64,000 nucleotides of DNA from Paludisphaera rhizosphaerae (GCF_011065895.1 NZ_JAALCR010000021.1:1-64000), one strand, 5' to 3'. Counted from the stretch's first letter, positions 29,874 to 56,301 are shown. Made by a program: numbers and translations. Notes: a model not told the origin generated them from the letters alone.

Positions 29874-30167
29874 ATGTCATACGGCGGAACGAGCGATCCC
29901 TCGGGCGTGCAGGTGACGTTCTTGGACCAGACCGGCGCGAAATCGGTGAAGGCGGTGATCGCATTCAGCGTGCCCGTCAGTCGGATCATCCCGAACATCA
30001 TCACCAAGATGAACCTGCCGGCCACCAGTCCCGACGGCCAACCGATGAGTTACGCGCTCGATCATAAGGAAGGCGGCCGGCGGCTGCTGGAAAACTGGAC
30101 CCTCGTGGACGCCGGCATCCGTGACGGCGATCACCTGATCGTCTATCCCGAGGTGGTGGCGGGTTAG
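29874..30167 (+). CDS. Ubiquitin-like protein, YukD/EsaB-type
   Basis: A 97-residue beta-grasp protein. Pattern: VQVTFLDQ first strand, then FSVPVSRIIPNIITKMNLP helix, SYALDHKEGGRRL strand, TLVDAGIRDGDHLIVYPE (the DGD(x)L(x)VxPE signature of ubiquitin-like YukD). The C-terminus is Val-Ala-Gly, with a single terminal glycine. It is proposed as the modifier of a conjugation system: the three downstream genes encode E2, E1 and JAMM homologues. It has an excellent ribosome site, gaggagg at 29857-29863, ten bases before the ATG. The in-frame open stretch upstream is not protein-like. Ends 74 bases before the E2 gene. Confidence 0.88.
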   Translation: MSYGGTSDPSGVQVTFLDQTGAKSVKAVIAFSVPVSRIIPNIITKMNLPATSPDGQPMSYALDHKEGGRRLLENWTLVDAGIRDGDHLIVYPEVVAG

Positions 30168-30241
30168 TCCGCCTCGGCGGCTCAACGCGACGAAGGCGGA
30201 GGGAGCAGGCGACCCAGCCCAGCCGATACGGACCCACGACC

Positions 30242-31015
30242 ATGCACGACTCGCCGCGACTGCGACGGCTTCGCAACGACCTGGCAGCCCTCGAAAGGCT
30301 GAAGGCCGAGAGTTCGGTCTTTGAGTTCAAGGCTCAGGGCGACCCGCCCCACGCCTACCGAATCCGATTCAAGGGAAGAGGCCTGCACCGCGAGGGGGGC
30401 CGCGTTCGGCCCCAGACGATGCACGAGGTCGAGATCAAGCTCGGCTCCTCGTATCCTCGAACGATCCCCGAAATCCGCTGGCTCTCGCCCATCTACCATC
30501 CGAACATCTCCGAGATCGGGATGGTCTGCCTGGGGGGCTACGGCACTCACTGGGTCCCCAGCGTGCAGCTCGATGAGCTCTGCACGATGCTCTGGGACAT
30601 GGTCCGGTACCACAACTTCGACGTCCGCAGCCCGTACAACCGCGACGCCGCCCTCTGGGCCGGCAACCAGACGGCCGTCCCCTTCCCGACGGACCCACGG
30701 CCCATCCGCGACCTTCGCGAGGCCATGGGCCGGATCGAAGGGACCTCCGGCGGTCCTCAGCGGTTCGCAACCCCTGTGCAAGCGCGTGGACTCCTCGGCG
30801 CTGCGGCCGCCGCCGGAGAGGCCGTCGACCGGGTCCGGCGATTCCTTGAACGTCGCAACCGACCGGCCGACGACGAACAGGCTCCGACCTCGCTCGCGTC
30901 GATGACGCAGCCGCTCGACGACGGCGTCCTGATCCTGGAGTCGACCGTCGACGAGGCCGTCGCCCCCATCCCGCCGGCCCCGGAGCCCGAGGCCGACATC
31001 CTCTTCATCGAGTGA
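30242..31015 (+). CDS. E2-like ubiquitin-conjugating enzyme (UBC fold) with C-terminal extension
   Basis: A 257-residue protein. Residues 1-140 match a UBC/E2 fold: RLRRLRNDLAALE opening helix, YPRTIPEIRWLSPIYHPN with the HPN motif at 86-88, then IGMVCLGGY with catalytic-type Cys96, HWVP (Trp104, Pro106) and helices ending around SPYNRDAALWA. In E2 enzymes this Cys carries the modifier as a thioester. Residues 141-257 are Pro/Ala/Asp/Glu-rich and end ADILFIE; no domain recognised. It sits between the modifier and E1 genes, 25 bases before the latter. Confidence 0.9.
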   Translation: MHDSPRLRRLRNDLAALERLKAESSVFEFKAQGDPPHAYRIRFKGRGLHREGGRVRPQTMHEVEIKLGSSYPRTIPEIRWLSPIYHPNISEIGMVCLGGYGTHWVPSVQLDELCTMLWDMVRYHNFDVRSPYNRDAALWAGNQTAVPFPTDPRPIRDLREAMGRIEGTSGGPQRFATPVQARGLLGAAAAAGEAVDRVRRFLERRNRPADDEQAPTSLASMTQPLDDGVLILESTVDEAVAPIPPAPEPEADILFIE

Positions 31016-31040
31016 GCCGGCCGGCCGGACCAACAGACCC

Positions 31041-32240
31041 ATGACGACGCAGCCGCCCCTCGACGAAGCCCCCCTGCGCATCGACGACGACGACCGCTAC
31101 AGCCGGCTCCGCCTGATCCCCTGGTGGCGTCAGGAACGGCTCGCCGCGGCGAAGGTTCTCGTCGTCGGCGCGGGAGCGCTCGGCAACGAGGTCCTGAAGA
31201 ACCTCGCCCTCGTCGGCGTCGGAACGACCTACGTCATCGACCTGGACTCGGTCGAACCGTCGAACCTGTCGCGGTCGGTTCTCTTCCGGGCCGAGGACGG
31301 CGGGCTTCCCAAGGCCGTCGTCGCCGCTCGTCGGGCCGGCGAGTTGAACCCGGAAGTCGCCTTCATCCCGATGCATGGCGACGTCATCACGGATCTCGGG
31401 CTCGGTCTGTTCGCCCATGTCGACCTGGTCATCGGCTGCCTGGATAACCGCGAAGCCCGGCTCTGGGTCAACCGCCAGTGCTGGAAGGTCGGCCGGCCCT
31501 GGATCGACGCCGGCATCCAGGAGATCCAGGGGGTCGTGAAGGTCTTCACGCCCCCGGCCTCGGCCTGCTACGAATGCACGATGACCGAGCGCGACTACCA
31601 GCTTCTGAACCTCCGCTATAGCTGCCCCCTGCTCCGTCGGGACGACATTTTGGCCGGCAAGGTTCCGACCGCGCCGACGATCGCCTCGATGATGGCCTCG
31701 CTCCAGGTGCAGGAGGCCCTCAAGCTGCTGCACGGGATGGCCGTCGCGGGGGGGACGGCGATGGTCTTCAACGGCGTCGGCAACCAGTTCTACACGACCA
31801 AGCTCCCCTTCCGCGAAGACTGCCTCAGCCACGAGACCTACCCCCAGCCGATCGAGCTGGCGATTGGAAACGACGCCACCGTCCGCGACCTGTTCAACGC
31901 GGCGGCCGACGAAGGGCTCGAAGGGCCGGCCTCGCTGGCCCTCGATCGTGAGTTGGTGGAGGCCGTGGAATGCCCGCGCTGCGGCGGCCGCCGCGAGCTG
32001 ATGCGGCCCCGGACCACCGTCCGTCAGGCCGAGGCTGAGTGCCCAGACTGCCGTCAGCCGGGTCGGCCCGTGGTCGTCAGCGCGATCGGCGAGGATTCTC
32101 CGCTGGCCTCGCGGACGCTGGCCCAGGTCGGCGTCCCCCGGTTCGACGTCGTTCGGGTCGACGGCGGCGGCTCGTCGCGGTTCTTCCTGCTGGCCGGCGA
32201 CCGCGACGGCCTGGGCTCAGGATGGGGGGAACGCCCTTGA
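31041..32240 (+). CDS. E1-like ThiF/MoeB-family activating enzyme with C-terminal zinc-ribbon region
   Basis: A 399-residue protein. The adenylation domain has GAGALGNE (residues 43-50, nucleotide binding), DLDSVEPSNLSRSVLFR (67-83), Lys91 and LDN (134-136), all typical of E1/ThiF. A CYEC pair (176-179) and Cys195 in YSCPLLRR precede a helix ending ASLQVQEALKLL. Cys195 is a candidate thioester site by position, without certainty. The C-terminal 100 residues include two CxxC pairs (CPRC 311-314, CPDC 334-337), a possible zinc ribbon. This protein is expected to adenylate the modifier's C-terminal Gly. The stop overlaps the next gene's TTG by four bases if that start is used. Confidence 0.9.
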   Translation: MTTQPPLDEAPLRIDDDDRYSRLRLIPWWRQERLAAAKVLVVGAGALGNEVLKNLALVGVGTTYVIDLDSVEPSNLSRSVLFRAEDGGLPKAVVAARRAGELNPEVAFIPMHGDVITDLGLGLFAHVDLVIGCLDNREARLWVNRQCWKVGRPWIDAGIQEIQGVVKVFTPPASACYECTMTERDYQLLNLRYSCPLLRRDDILAGKVPTAPTIASMMASLQVQEALKLLHGMAVAGGTAMVFNGVGNQFYTTKLPFREDCLSHETYPQPIELAIGNDATVRDLFNAAADEGLEGPASLALDRELVEAVECPRCGGRRELMRPRTTVRQAEAECPDCRQPGRPVVVSAIGEDSPLASRTLAQVGVPRFDVVRVDGGGSSRFFLLAGDRDGLGSGWGERP

Positions 32241-32260
32241 GCCAGGACGGCGGCGACGAA

Positions 32261-33643
32261 ATGGTCTTCGGCGAGGTCCGGTTCCGCGAGCCGGCCAAGA
32301 TGCGCCGGCCCGACCGCGATCCCAGGCTCGCCTGCGTCGCCTGCCAGACCCCCGGCCCCGGCGACCTGCCTGTCTTCCTCGACCTCGCTCCAGCCGACGC
32401 CATCGAACGCCACGCCCTCTCCGACACGACCGTCGAACTGGGCGGCGTGCTGCTGGGCAAGGAGTGCGTCGACCCGACCGACGGCGCCCCCTTCGTCTGG
32501 ATCACCCAGGCGCTGGAGGCCAAGCATTACGCCAACACTCAGGCCAGCTTCACCTACACTCACGACTCCTGGGAAGAGATCACCCGCGAGCGCGACCGGC
32601 TCCACCCTGACCTCGACGTCGTCGGCTGGTATCACACGCACCCGAACTTCGGGATTTTCCTGTCGCATCACGATCTGTTCATTCACAAGAACTTTTTCGA
32701 CCAGCCCCTTCAGACCGCGTACGTCGTCGACCCCATTCAGGGGACGCGCGGCTTCTTCCAGTGGTCGGACGGGGGCATGGTGCAGGTGGGCGGCTTCCAC
32801 CTCTGCGCCGAGCGTCACGAGCGGGCGGCGCTCTCGCGGTTGGCGGACCAGTTGGAGAACCTCCCCGGTTCGCCGGCCGGAGGCATCGGCGCGTCCCTAT
32901 CTCCTCGCCTTGAGGCGGAGCTGATCAAGATGCTGAATCGACCCGCCCCCTCCCGCGTCGCGCCCGGCGACGGACTGGCGTTGGCCGCGTTCCTCGGGTT
33001 CCTCGGAACGATGGGCCTGCTCATGCTCGCGGGGCTGGGGCTCTGGCTCCACTACGTGGACACTCGCCTGAGCGAGCAGTCGCACGCCCTGACCGTTCTG
33101 GCTCGGGAAGTCGAAGAATCGTCGGCTGGCCGCCGGGCTGCGCACGACCTGATGCTGGAGAAGATCGGCGACGCGAACCCCGAGACGTTCCTGGCACGCT
33201 TTGAGAAACTCGCCCAGGCCCGTGATGAGGCCCGCAAGCAACTGGCCGATCAACGTTCCGCCACCGAGGTTCTCGGCGCCCGGCTGAAGGAACTCTCCGA
33301 GAAGGCCGGCGGCCTCGAGGCCGAATTGGCGGCGACCCTGAAATCGCGAGAGGTCTTCGAGTCCGAGGCCAAGGAGGCTCCCAAGCTGCGGGATGAGGTC
33401 GAGGAGCTGAAACAGGCCCTCGACGACGACAAGCGTGAACTCACCGATCAGCGCGCGATCCTCAAGTCGGCCGAAGGCGAGCAAGCCGCCAAAACGTATA
33501 AAGACCTCAAGTTCTATACGCTGACCACCTGGATCGGAGCCCTGACCTCGGCCTTGCTCGCGGTGACGGCCGTCTGGCTTTATGTTCGTCCCCAGCTCTC
33601 GACGTCGGTCGACAATGCCGACGCCGCCCGGCGTGCGCTCTGA
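32261..33643 (+). CDS. JAMM/JAB peptidase with two membrane helices and coiled coil
   Basis: About 460 residues. Residues 50-170 hold a Mov34/MPN/PAD-1 (JAMM) metalloprotease domain: VELGGVLLG with Glu59, and GWYHTHPNFGIFLSHHD, i.e. His125-x-His127-(x7)-Ser135-x2-Asp138. All expected zinc ligands are present, so it should be a deconjugase for the operon's modifier. After residue 230 comes a transmembrane helix (about 238-266), then a long charged segment with heptad-like Leu spacing (about 313-410), and a second helix (about 420-442) near the C-terminus. The JAMM domain is therefore membrane-tethered. The first ATG is at 32261; a TTG at 32237, overlapping the E1 stop (ttga), would add eight residues. 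Confidence 0.88.
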   Translation: MVFGEVRFREPAKMRRPDRDPRLACVACQTPGPGDLPVFLDLAPADAIERHALSDTTVELGGVLLGKECVDPTDGAPFVWITQALEAKHYANTQASFTYTHDSWEEITRERDRLHPDLDVVGWYHTHPNFGIFLSHHDLFIHKNFFDQPLQTAYVVDPIQGTRGFFQWSDGGMVQVGGFHLCAERHERAALSRLADQLENLPGSPAGGIGASLSPRLEAELIKMLNRPAPSRVAPGDGLALAAFLGFLGTMGLLMLAGLGLWLHYVDTRLSEQSHALTVLAREVEESSAGRRAAHDLMLEKIGDANPETFLARFEKLAQARDEARKQLADQRSATEVLGARLKELSEKAGGLEAELAATLKSREVFESEAKEAPKLRDEVEELKQALDDDKRELTDQRAILKSAEGEQAAKTYKDLKFYTLTTWIGALTSALLAVTAVWLYVRPQLSTSVDNADAARRAL

Positions 33644-45728: not shown

Positions 45729-47243
45729 ATGACGCGCCCCCCCGGCTGGAATCGACGCGACTGGATGAAAACAGCGACGGCCGCCGGCCTGGCCTCGGGA
45801 CTCCCCGCGGCGCGGGCCGCGACCCCCGCCGATCCCGACCGTATCCGCGCCGAAAACGCCAAGCCCGGAAGCCGCGACTGGATCAACACCAAGGTTCGGG
45901 TCGATCCGAAGACCAAATTTCGGAGCCCCGGGATCGAGGGTTATCTTTCGCGCAGCAGCGTCCGGCCCGGCGAATCGCTGACGCTCCACGTCAGCACCAA
46001 CCCGGCCTCTCGATTCACCGTCGAGTTGTATCGGATGGGCTTCTACCAGGGCCATGGCGCCCGGTTGATGGAGAAGCTCGGCTCGTTCCCCGGCCAGGTC
46101 CAACCCGACCCCGAGATCGGCCCGATGCGGCTCCGCGAGTGCAAGTGGGAGCCCTGCGTCACGATCACCATCCCCGAAGACTGGGTGAGCGGCGTTTATA
46201 TCGGCAAGCTCAAGGCCGAGCGCGAGGGGCTGGAGAGTTACGTCGTGTTCGTCGTCCGCGACGACCGCAAGGCCGACTACCTGTTGCAGGTCTCCGACCA
46301 CACCTGGAACGCCTATAACCGCTGGCCGTCGAACTTCGCCCTCTACGACGACGGCAAGAAAAGCTGGTACTGGGGACCGGACGTCCAGACGAGCTTCGAC
46401 CGGCCCTACGGCAAATACTGCCAGATCTTCGATGCGCCGCTCTCGGTGGGCTCGGGCGAATGGCTCCTCTGGGAGTTCCCCTTGGCCTTCTGGATGGAAG
46501 AACAAGGCTACGACGTCACCTACATCTCCAACTTCGACACCCACTTCGACCCCGAAGGGCTCCGCCGCGCGAAGGGGTGGATCTCGATCGGCCACGACGA
46601 ATACTGGTCGCTGGAGATGTTCGAGACGATGAAGAAAGCCCGCGACGAGGGGCTCAACATCGCCTTTCTCTCCGGCAACGCCATCTGCGGCGTGGTCGAC
46701 CTGCACCCCTCCAGCGACGGTCGACCGGGACGGATCATCGAGCGCGTCGGCCGATTCGGCTCGCCCCGCCAGGGGGAGTTGGAACACGGCTTCCCGGAGG
46801 AGGCCCTGTTCAAGAAGAACGGCCCCAACGAGGCCACCCTCATCGGCGCGCAGAGCACCTATCCCGTCACCGGCGGCGGCGATTGGATCTGCCGACAACC
46901 GGCCCACTGGCTCTTCGCCGGCTCCGGGATGAAGGAAGGCGACGCGATCGGCGGCCTGGTCGGCTGGGAATGGCACGGTGAGCCCTGGCAGATCCCTGGG
47001 CTGGAAGTCGTCGCCAGCGGCCCAACCACGAGCCCGCGCGGGGAGGGGCTCTACACGGCCACGATCTATCCCGGGCCCAAGGGGAACATCGTCTTCAACG
47101 CTGCGACCATCTGGTGGGCGACTGGCCTTTCGGCCCCGCCGGGCTTCATCATGCCCAACGTCTACACCCAGCCCAAAGGCGTCGACCCTCGCGTCCAGAA
47201 GATTACGGCCAACCTCCTCGAACGCCTCCGGAGCACCGCGTGA
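45729..47243 (+). CDS. N,N-dimethylformamidase large-subunit-like exported protein
   Basis: A 504-residue protein. The N-terminus has a twin-arginine-like signal (NRRDWMKTATAAGLASG). The body matches the N,N-dimethylformamidase beta-subunit-like domain: residues such as TWNAYNRWPSNFALY, YWGPDVQTSFDRPYGK, FWMEEQGYDVTYISNFDTHFD, GHDEYWSLEMFETMKKARD and FLSGNAICG. In true dimethylformamidase this subunit binds iron; whether this homologue hydrolyses amides is unknown. It is coupled to the following S66 peptidase by a four-base overlap (gtga). Confidence 0.75.
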   Translation: MTRPPGWNRRDWMKTATAAGLASGLPAARAATPADPDRIRAENAKPGSRDWINTKVRVDPKTKFRSPGIEGYLSRSSVRPGESLTLHVSTNPASRFTVELYRMGFYQGHGARLMEKLGSFPGQVQPDPEIGPMRLRECKWEPCVTITIPEDWVSGVYIGKLKAEREGLESYVVFVVRDDRKADYLLQVSDHTWNAYNRWPSNFALYDDGKKSWYWGPDVQTSFDRPYGKYCQIFDAPLSVGSGEWLLWEFPLAFWMEEQGYDVTYISNFDTHFDPEGLRRAKGWISIGHDEYWSLEMFETMKKARDEGLNIAFLSGNAICGVVDLHPSSDGRPGRIIERVGRFGSPRQGELEHGFPEEALFKKNGPNEATLIGAQSTYPVTGGGDWICRQPAHWLFAGSGMKEGDAIGGLVGWEWHGEPWQIPGLEVVASGPTTSPRGEGLYTATIYPGPKGNIVFNAATIWWATGLSAPPGFIMPNVYTQPKGVDPRVQKITANLLERLRSTA

Positions 47244-48253
47244 AGCGTCTCATCGCCTCGTCCCTGGTACTCGCTCTCTACCTTGCGGCTTCGGTCCACG
47301 CCGAGGAGTGGACCAAGCCGCAGCCGCTCCGCACCGGCGATCTCATCCGGTTCGTCGCCCCGGCCGGCCCGGTCGACAAGGAACTCGTCGACCACGCCCG
47401 GACGCTTTTCGAGTCGATGGGCTACAAGGTGTACGTCCCCGAGGGGATCGAGCGGAAGTGGATGTACCTTGCGGGGACCGACGACCAGCGCGTGAACGAA
47501 CTCAACGAGGCGCTCCGCGACCCCAACGCCCGCGCGGTCTTCTCCTGCCGAGGCGGCTACGGGCTCACCCGCATCCTCGACCGGGTCGACTATGAGGCGC
47601 TGCGGAAGCATCCCAAGATCGTCGCGGGGTATTCCGACCTGACGGCTCTCCATCTGGCGATCGGCCTGAAGTGCCGGCTCGTGACGATCCACGGGCCGAT
47701 GCCGATGTACTCGCTGGCGAAATCAGGCGAGGAACACCGGTACGCCAACGACCTCTTCTGGAGGCTGCTGCGCACGGGCAAGTACTCGGACGACCCGGCC
47801 GCCGCCCTGACCGTTCCTCTCCCTTCGCCGTCCGAGCGGCCGAAGGCCCTCGTTTCCGGCAAGGCGACGGGGAGGCTCACCGGCGGGAACCTGACGTTGC
47901 TCGCGGCCACGGCGGGCACGCCCTACCAGATGGAGACCAAGGGACGCATCCTCTTCATCGAGGACACGCACGAGGAAGGCTACAGCGTCGACCGGATGCT
48001 CAGCCAACTGCGGCTGGCCGGCCTGCTCGACGGCCTCACGGGAGTCGTCCTGGGGAGCTTCGACGGCGCCGACGAGGCCGAGCTGGCCCAGGTCTTTCGC
48101 GACTACTTCGTCGGCAAGGGATATCCCGTGGTGACCGGCTTCCCGGTCGGTCACCTGCCGCCCAACGCCGTACTCCCTTACGGCGTGCAGGCGGAACTCG
48201 ACGCCGACGCCGGGACGCTCCGCCTGCTGGAATCGCCGTTCGCCGCCGATTGA
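47240..48253 (+). CDS. LD-carboxypeptidase, peptidase family S66
   Basis: A 337-residue exported enzyme with a signal peptide (KRLIASSLVLALYLAASVHA). Signature blocks: IRFVAPAGPVD, CRGGYGLTRIL, VAGYSDLTALHLA (candidate Ser nucleophile in GYSD), GGNLTLLAATAGTPYQM and FIEDTHEEGYSVDRML (carrying the catalytic Glu), plus FPVGHLPPNAVLPYGV with the expected His. S66 enzymes remove the terminal D-Ala from murein tetrapeptides; some planctomycetes retain peptidoglycan. GTG start overlapping the upstream stop fixes the frame. Confidence 0.88.
   Translation: MKRLIASSLVLALYLAASVHAEEWTKPQPLRTGDLIRFVAPAGPVDKELVDHARTLFESMGYKVYVPEGIERKWMYLAGTDDQRVNELNEALRDPNARAVFSCRGGYGLTRILDRVDYEALRKHPKIVAGYSDLTALHLAIGLKCRLVTIHGPMPMYSLAKSGEEHRYANDLFWRLLRTGKYSDDPAAALTVPLPSPSERPKALVSGKATGRLTGGNLTLLAATAGTPYQMETKGRILFIEDTHEEGYSVDRMLSQLRLAGLLDGLTGVVLGSFDGADEAELAQVFRDYFVGKGYPVVTGFPVGHLPPNAVLPYGVQAELDADAGTLRLLESPFAAD

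Positions 48254-54138: not shown

Positions 54139-56301
<2,163 letters not shown>

What the first reader, a model, noticed from the sequence alone, without database searches (positions are those of the whole stretch)
29874..33643. Complete ubiquitin-like conjugation operon: modifier, E2, E1 and JAMM deconjugase
Four adjacent co-directional genes, in the order modifier-E2-E1-JAMM, each with its key residues intact. The modifier has a YukD-like beta-grasp fold ending in Gly. The E2 has HPN (86-88) and Cys96 with W-x-P. The E1 has the ThiF nucleotide loop and Cys195. The JAMM has Glu59, HxH (125/127) and Ser135-x2-Asp138. Gene order and component set match bacterial Bil-type operons (BilA-D) and earlier descriptions of prokaryotic ubiquitin-like systems. 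The planctomycete version differs in the YukD-like modifier and the architecture of the other parts. It may be a separate subtype with a different target.
Basis: partly seen in the sequence, partly recalled or inferred. Interest (0 to 1): 0.9.

Follow-up and report, generated by a model that had tools for sequence, protein, structure and literature searches.

The report
Planctomycete ubiquitin-like protein-tagging system
Four neighbouring genes in a planctomycete (genus Paludisphaera) look like a complete ubiquitin-style tagging machine whose tag belongs to the YukD family; the same machine is kept across its bacterial family, usually beside a membrane-anchored RING gene, which suggests a housekeeping role at the membrane rather than phage defence.

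Summary
In detail: YukD-type modifier, E2, E1 and JAMM are co-directional at 29874-33643, each a clear family member with catalytic residues conserved in relatives. It is not a Bil operon: no BilA/B/C model hits, a different gene order, a single-ThiF E1, and an HPN-type E2 without BilB's CEHH spacing. It belongs to the class of RING-containing operons reported for Planctomycetes in 2011 (Burroughs et al., known here only through a 2014 review). Found here: (1) the modifier ends in an almost invariant Ala-Gly (71 of 73 distinct homologues), with unrelated tails after it in about two thirds, as in processed precursors; (2) an E3 candidate exists, a RING protein directly upstream in most Isosphaeraceae but moved elsewhere in the window's genus, with an N-terminal half modelled as TtfA-like and translocon-subunit-like; (3) a Ste24-like protease and/or MMPL transporter often follow the JAMM; (4) E2s of this clade end in a conserved acidic-hydrophobic motif; (5) Pirellulaceae operons add a second E2 without the catalytic cysteine. 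Best reading: a vertically kept, membrane-associated Ubl conjugation cascade. The chemistry is well supported by sequence; target and purpose are inferred and untested.

The parts
29874..30167 (+). modifier (Ubl), 97 aa, YukD-type beta-grasp, ends ..VVAG
   Evidence: Pfam YukD 4.1e-15; only YukD-family protein in the genome; AG conserved in 71 of 73 distinct homologues
30159..30164 (+). C-terminal Ala96-Gly97, inferred activated end; no tail follows in this species
   Evidence: A 40/40 and G 39/40 in the first set; homologues carry tails of 2-68 unrelated residues after it
30242..31015 (+). E2, 257 aa, UBC fold plus Pro-rich tail
   Evidence: UQ_con 3.4e-12; PDB E2s down to 3.7e-10
30497..30529 (+). 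E2 active site HPN(86-88)..Cys96
   Evidence: aligned with solved Ubc13-type E2s; HPN 58/58, Cys 54/58
30995..31012 (+). E2 C-terminal motif DILFIE (SIM-like); a similar DDGVLILE at 30917-30940
   Evidence: pattern in last 16 aa of 50 of 62 active E2s of the clade against 1 of 507 other genes
31041..32240 (+). E1, 399 aa, single ThiF adenylation domain plus C-terminal domain with inserted zinc ribbon
   Evidence: ThiF 7.4e-53; AF2 pLDDT 91, MoeB/ThiF Z about 32
31623..31625 (+). E1 Cys195, proposed thioester Cys
   Evidence: 44/45 conserved, invariant in A2
31836..32210 (+). E1 C-terminal domain, UFD-like position, with zinc ribbon Cys311/314/334/337
   Evidence: VIA-align of UBA1/SAE2/UBA3 chains extends to residue about 387; Cys conserved
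32222..33643 (+). JAMM metalloprotease, 473 aa (alternative starts 32237 TTG, 32261 ATG), TM - coiled coil - TM at the C-terminus
   Evidence: JAB 3.7e-9; Rpn11 match 3.8e-7; TM 250-276 and 437-455
32633..32674 (+). JAMM HxH..Ser..Asp motif (H138, H140, S148, D151); Glu72 at 32435-32437
   Evidence: 44/44 conserved

Best explanation
The four genes encode a working ubiquitin-like conjugation cycle. The YukD-type modifier, already ending in Ala-Gly, is adenylated by the E1 and passed to its Cys195, then to Cys96 of the E2, and is attached to protein targets. A RING protein encoded elsewhere in the same genome acts as E3 at the inner membrane. The membrane-anchored JAMM removes the modifier and, in species whose modifier carries a tail, also trims the precursor. 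Because the E3 candidate and the JAMM are both membrane-anchored and the operon often sits beside a Ste24-like protease and an MMPL transporter in relatives, the most likely targets are membrane proteins or membrane-associated complexes. Shown by sequence and model: families, catalytic residues, AG end, gene neighbourhoods, TtfA-like fold of the RING protein, and that this is a chromosomal trait found across the family. Inferred: thioester relay, RING as E3, JAMM specificity, membrane targets, function of the E2 tail motif.
For: Family matches; residue conservation; Cys96 and JAMM ligands align with solved E2 and Rpn11; E1 model at pLDDT 91 matches MoeB/ThiF and, with its C-terminal domain, UBA1/SAE2/UBA3; Ala-Gly with unrelated tails; the modifier is the most conserved component, mean pairwise identity 0.89 against 0.72 E2, 0.71 E1, 0.58 RING, 0.51 JAMM; one YukD, one E2 and one Prok-RING_1 per genome in the genus; RING directly upstream of the modifier in most Isosphaeraceae and downstream of the JAMM or second E2 in Pirellulaceae; RING-protein model matches TtfA, Foldseek 9.0e-7 and Z 14.9 over 160 residues at 3.8 A, and three translocon chains at Z 10.5-13.2; M48 and MMPL neighbours. 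Precedent: C. subterraneum cascade with pro-ubiquitin trimmed by an Rpn11 homologue (PMC5654768); TtfA residues 1-205 bind the MMPL transporter MmpL3 (PMC6593404).
Against: No biochemistry. Two MAGs of the family have the RING protein without modifier or E2 (G008, G011), so it may have another role or the assemblies may be gapped. The M48 and MMPL neighbours are seen only within Isosphaeraceae and are not adjacent in the window's genus, so they could be inherited synteny. The RING match is to a treble-clef family, and such domains need not be E3s. Classical YukD of Bacillus is not conjugated (cited in PMC1779556).
Confidence: 0.72

Rival explanations
1. Bil-type anti-phage system (BilABCD): the tag is put on phage tail proteins during infection.
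For: Same four component types; PADLOC BilD hits the E1 at 9.7e-7.
Against: No BilA/BilB/BilC hits; different order, single-domain E1, no CEHH spacing; present in 22 of 25 family genomes; no plasmid match for the modifier; very high modifier conservation; presence of a RING partner.
Confidence: 0.06
2. Sulfur-carrier or cofactor pathway (ThiS/MoaD-like): E1 only activates the modifier as a sulfur donor.
For: E1 is closest in sequence to ThiF/MoeB.
Against: Dedicated E2 with catalytic Cys, JAMM and RING in the same conserved set; Ala-Gly end rather than Gly-Gly; tails after Ala-Gly.
Confidence: 0.06
3. Type VII secretion accessory: the YukD protein serves WXG100 export as in Bacillus and the E1/E2/JAMM regulate it.
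For: YukD family; weak EccD match 0.0011; WXG100 genes exist elsewhere in the genomes.
Against: No WXG100 near the operon in the window's genus (hits lie on other contigs or far away); YukD and WXG100 models were not tested for linkage outside the genus.
Confidence: 0.05
4. The cascade is real but soluble and general (proteolysis or stress signalling through HslV or another protease), and the membrane neighbours are coincidental synteny.
For: HslV-family proteins in the same genomes; M48 and MMPL are not adjacent in the window's genus.
Against: JAMM and RING protein both carry TM segments; TtfA-like fold on the RING protein.
Confidence: 0.25

Closest known systems
Predicted bacterial RING-E1-E2-Ubl-JAB operons of Actinobacteria, Planctomycetes and Acidobacteria (Burroughs, Iyer, Aravind 2011; cited in PMC4197634)
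   Same: component set including a Prok-RING_1 protein; phylum
   Different: the 2011 paper was not readable here, so it is unknown which of the present details (Ala-Gly tails, E2 tail motif, Cys-less second E2, TtfA-like domain) it already noted; no experiment known to me
Candidatus Caldiarchaeum subterraneum ubiquitin operon (PMC5654768)
   Same: Ubl, E1 with C-terminal UBL-like domain, E2, small RING, Rpn11/JAMM; precursor tail trimmed by the JAMM
   Different: modifier there ends Gly-Gly and is close to ubiquitin; RING protein is small and soluble; JAMM not membrane-anchored
Bil (BilABCD) anti-phage system (PMC11354881 and references)
   Same: Ubl, E2, E1, JAMM in one operon
   Different: order, E1 architecture, E2 motif, no RING, defence distribution
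YukD/EsaB of type VII secretion (PF08817)
   Same: modifier family and fold
   Different: Bacillus YukD is not conjugated (PMC1779556); here the C-terminal Ala-Gly is conserved and E1/E2/JAMM are adjacent
TtfA-MmpL3 complex of mycobacteria (PMC6593404)
   Same: fold of the RING protein's N-terminal half, N-terminal TM, MMPL gene in the neighbourhood in relatives
   Different: TtfA has no RING and no Ubl system

Membership tests
Ubiquitin-like conjugation system (general) | beta-grasp modifier with a conserved small-residue C-terminal end | tested here: met
   YukD 4.1e-15; AG in 71 of 73 distinct homologues
Ubiquitin-like conjugation system (general) | E1 with adenylation domain and catalytic Cys | tested here: met
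   ThiF 7.4e-53; Cys195 44/45
Ubiquitin-like conjugation system (general) | E2 with catalytic Cys in UBC fold | tested here: met
Ubiquitin-like conjugation system (general) | covalent transfer of the modifier to proteins | not testable with these tools
   needs biochemistry
RING-containing bacterial Ub-like operons (Burroughs 2011 type) | Prok-RING_1 protein encoded with E1/E2/Ubl/JAB | tested here: met
   PF14446 4.4e-8 upstream of the modifier in relatives; in the window's genome the RING gene is on another contig
Bil (BilABCD) | BilA, BilB, BilC family models | tested here: not met
   no PADLOC hit for modifier or E2; JAMM hits only generic JAB models
Bil (BilABCD) | E1 with inactive plus active adenylation domain | tested here: not met
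   single ThiF domain in 399 aa
Bil (BilABCD) | E2 with Cys-Glu-His-His spacing (+6, +8, +13) | tested here: not met
   residues +6/+8/+13 from Cys96 are T, W, L (motif from PMC11354881)
Bil (BilABCD) | anti-phage activity | not testable with these tools
   needs infection assay
Type VII secretion YukD | linkage to WXG100/FtsK-type secretion genes | tested here: not met
   WXG100 hits in the genus lie on other contigs or far from the operon; FtsK-type genes not tested
TtfA/CCDC47-like fold (RING protein N-terminal half) | fold match well above background | tested here: met
   6t84 Z 14.9/160 residues/3.8 A; translocon chains Z 10.5-13.2; next fold at Z 7.5
TtfA/CCDC47-like fold (RING protein N-terminal half) | binding to an MMPL transporter or to the translocon | not testable with these tools
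   only gene neighbourhood available
E1 with C-terminal UFD | beta-grasp domain at the UFD position | tested here: inconclusive
   VIA alignments to UBA1/SAE2/UBA3 reach residue about 387 but at 4.6-7.8 A overall; profile comparison with the modifier is weak, probability 15%

The most novel reading that the evidence does not exclude
A bacterial counterpart of ER-associated quality control: a membrane-anchored RING E3 with a TtfA/CCDC47-like client-binding domain tags membrane proteins (possibly MMPL-type transporters) with a YukD-type modifier, with a membrane JAMM to untag and a Ste24-like protease beside it; in Pirellulaceae an E2 plus a Cys-less E2 partner work together as Ubc13-Mms2 do.
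Probability: 0.2. Interest if true: 0.88.

Novelty: new variant of a known kind. Interest (0 to 1): 0.62.

Why it matters
Experimentally studied bacterial ubiquitin-like systems (Bil, CBASS Cap2, Bub) are linked to defence or stress operons. This one is kept across a whole family, has a RING partner, a modifier conserved far more than its enzymes, and membrane-anchored parts. If it works as proposed, it would be a housekeeping ubiquitin-like system in bacteria with cultivated hosts (Singulisphaera acidiphila, Tautonia, Paludisphaera), and it would turn YukD, usually seen as a secretion accessory, into a true protein modifier.

Tried and rejected
Modifier against PDB sequences: no significant match; the fold rests on the Pfam YukD match. 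E1 C-terminal domain as a copy of the modifier: only weak profile similarity. A Bil assignment: rejected on four features. Key papers (Burroughs 2009 and 2011, Chambers 2024, Gong 2025, Ye 2026) are not in the library. No paper mentions TtfA together with CCDC47. HslV lies on the same contig as the RING gene in the window's genome, about 20 kb away, but far from it in another congener, so no link is claimed. The modifier has no plasmid match. Complex prediction (modifier-E1, E2-tail-modifier) could not be run. The modifier, E2 and JAMM themselves were not folded; the two structure jobs went to the E1 and the RING protein.

Full report
OBSERVATION. Four co-directional genes at 29874-33643 encode a 97-aa YukD-type modifier, a 257-aa E2, a 399-aa E1 and a JAMM protein. 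Pfam E-values are 4.1e-15 (YukD), 3.4e-12 (UQ_con), 7.4e-53 (ThiF) and 3.7e-9 (JAB), all over the curated cut-offs. The JAMM has predicted TM segments at 250-276 and 437-455 flanking a coiled-coil stretch (coiled-coil-type matches).

CONSERVATION. The genus is Paludisphaera: one same-genus genome (G004, contig of 37055 bases) corresponds to Paludisphaera soli JC670 (L135). An E2 orthologue is in 22 of 25 genomes of the family searched. Across the phylum PF00179 occurs in 35 of 392 genomes. Ubl-E2-E1-JAMM is kept in nearly all Isosphaeraceae loci, including Singulisphaera acidiphila DSM 18658, Aquisphaera and Tautonia. Catalytic residues: E2 HPN 58/58 and Cys96 54/58; E1 Cys195 44/45, first zinc site C176/C179/C261/H264 and zinc ribbon C311/C314/C334/C337 nearly invariant; JAMM E/H/H/S/D 44/44. 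Within Isosphaeraceae the mean pairwise identity is 0.89 for the modifier against 0.72 E2, 0.71 E1, 0.58 RING and 0.51 JAMM, a pattern like ubiquitin's.

MODIFIER END. In 73 distinct homologues, 67 match VVAG/IVAG/FVAG/ITAG and four more end the fold in AG; the exceptions are one locus with IIA-A and one distant Chloroflexi protein. About a third end exactly at Ala-Gly, as in the window; the rest have 2-68 unrelated residues after it. A fixed end followed by unrelated tails is what processed precursors show, as in C. subterraneum pro-ubiquitin trimmed by Rpn11 (PMC5654768). Some short tails could be start-of-next-gene artefacts of annotation, but the stop codons are read directly from the DNA.

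THE MISSING E3 CANDIDATE. In most Isosphaeraceae a protein of about 278 aa lies directly upstream of the modifier on the same strand, with a C-terminal Prok-RING_1 domain (PF14446, 4.4e-8). In Paludisphaera it is elsewhere: G000 contig 50, 26611-27411. Each genome of the genus has one YukD, one Prok-RING_1 and one E2. Of 22 family genomes with a modifier, 21 have a RING hit by one of the two searches; two fragmented MAGs have the RING protein without the modifier. The RING-protein model (S. acidiphila, pLDDT 90) has an N-terminal helix, a domain at 22-202 and the RING. The domain matches mycobacterial TtfA (Foldseek 9.0e-7; Z 14.9, 160 residues, 3.8 A) and one chain each in three ribosome-translocon structures (Z 10.5-13.2), with the next fold at Z 7.5. 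I take these chains to be CCDC47 from the composition of the complexes (PMC7505659); the tool does not name the chain. TtfA residues 1-205, including its TM, are required to bind the MMPL transporter MmpL3 (PMC6593404).

NEIGHBOURS. In many Isosphaeraceae a Ste24/M48-type membrane protease (PF01435, PF16491) and/or an MMPL transporter (PF03176, 3.6e-48) follow the JAMM on the same strand; the full string RING-Ubl-E2-E1-JAMM-M48-MMPL is seen in L140, L146, L148, L154 and L172. These neighbours are not seen outside the family in my loci and are not adjacent in Paludisphaera, which keeps one PF16491 protein elsewhere, so this is suggestive only.

E2 TAIL AND SECOND E2. E2s of this clade end, after a variable Pro-rich tail, in a short acidic-hydrophobic motif (DILFIE in the window). 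A strict pattern is found in the last 16 residues of 50 of 62 active E2s of the clade and 1 of 507 other genes; the sequences are related, so the count is not a probability, and the pattern was written after seeing the data. Pirellulaceae-type operons read Ubl-E2-short JAMM-E1-long JAMM-E2'-RING. In the loci with a readable HPN motif E2' lacks the catalytic Cys in all, and most keep the tail motif. By analogy with Mms2/Uev1 it may assist the active E2; this is inference.

E1. The model (pLDDT 91) matches MoeB/ThiF at Z about 32 and eukaryotic E1s; in UBA1, SAE2 and UBA3 chains the alignment runs on to residue about 387, the UFD position, at 4.6-7.8 A. Sequence similarity of this domain to the modifier is weak. 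A UFD-like role is plausible, not shown.

COMPARISON. Not Bil: no BilA/B/C hits, order, single-domain E1, E2 spacing (PMC11354881). Not one of the five operon types of 2006 by description (PMC1779556). A 2014 review states that related RING-containing operons occur in Actinobacteria, Planctomycetes and Acidobacteria, citing Burroughs et al. 2011 (PMC4197634). So the class was predicted; I could not read the paper.

MECHANISM. Adenylation of Ala-Gly by E1, thioester at Cys195, transfer to E2 Cys96, attachment to targets with the RING protein as membrane E3, removal by the membrane JAMM. All catalytic steps are inferred from conserved residues and homologues. Membrane targets are inferred from TM segments, the TtfA-like domain and neighbourhoods. 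Overall interest 0.62: the class was known, but the distribution, the modifier end, the RING architecture and the Cys-less second E2 make it a testable, possibly housekeeping system.

Noticed in passing
L104, L105, L098, L109, L112 (also L082, L088, L114): A second, longer operon type in other planctomycetes: E1-JAMM, an FHA/TM protein, several RING/zinc-ribbon/TM proteins, DUF2752, a RING fused to a trypsin-like domain, then E2.
   Followed up: partly
L158, L160, L162, L165, L167, L169-L171, L180 (second E2); L079, L107, L110: E2-like proteins without the catalytic Cys; in the Pirellulaceae operons they sit beside an intact E2 and mostly keep its tail motif.
   Followed up: partly
L159, L164, L181, L185: Closely similar operons in MAGs labelled Abditibacteriales, Riflebacteria, Deltaproteobacteria and Wallbacteria: transfer or mis-binning.
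   Followed up: no
L193 (Pelolinea submarina) and L194 (Thermoproteota MAG): Distant E2 relatives; L193 has two E2s, E1, YukD-like protein, JAMM and RING-type hits close together.
   Followed up: no
L161, L162, L165, L167, L174, L189: In several Pirellulaceae loci a predicted transglutaminase-like protein (n6) precedes the modifier and a conserved unknown protein (n5) lies divergently upstream.
   Followed up: no
L168: 7730-9803: E1 and JAMM are split into fragments, either a pseudogene or an assembly error.
   Followed up: no
window 54139-56301, 45765-47243, 47240-48253: NuoL/Mrp-type proton antiporter subunit; DMFA2_C protein followed directly by an S66 LD-carboxypeptidase.
   Followed up: no
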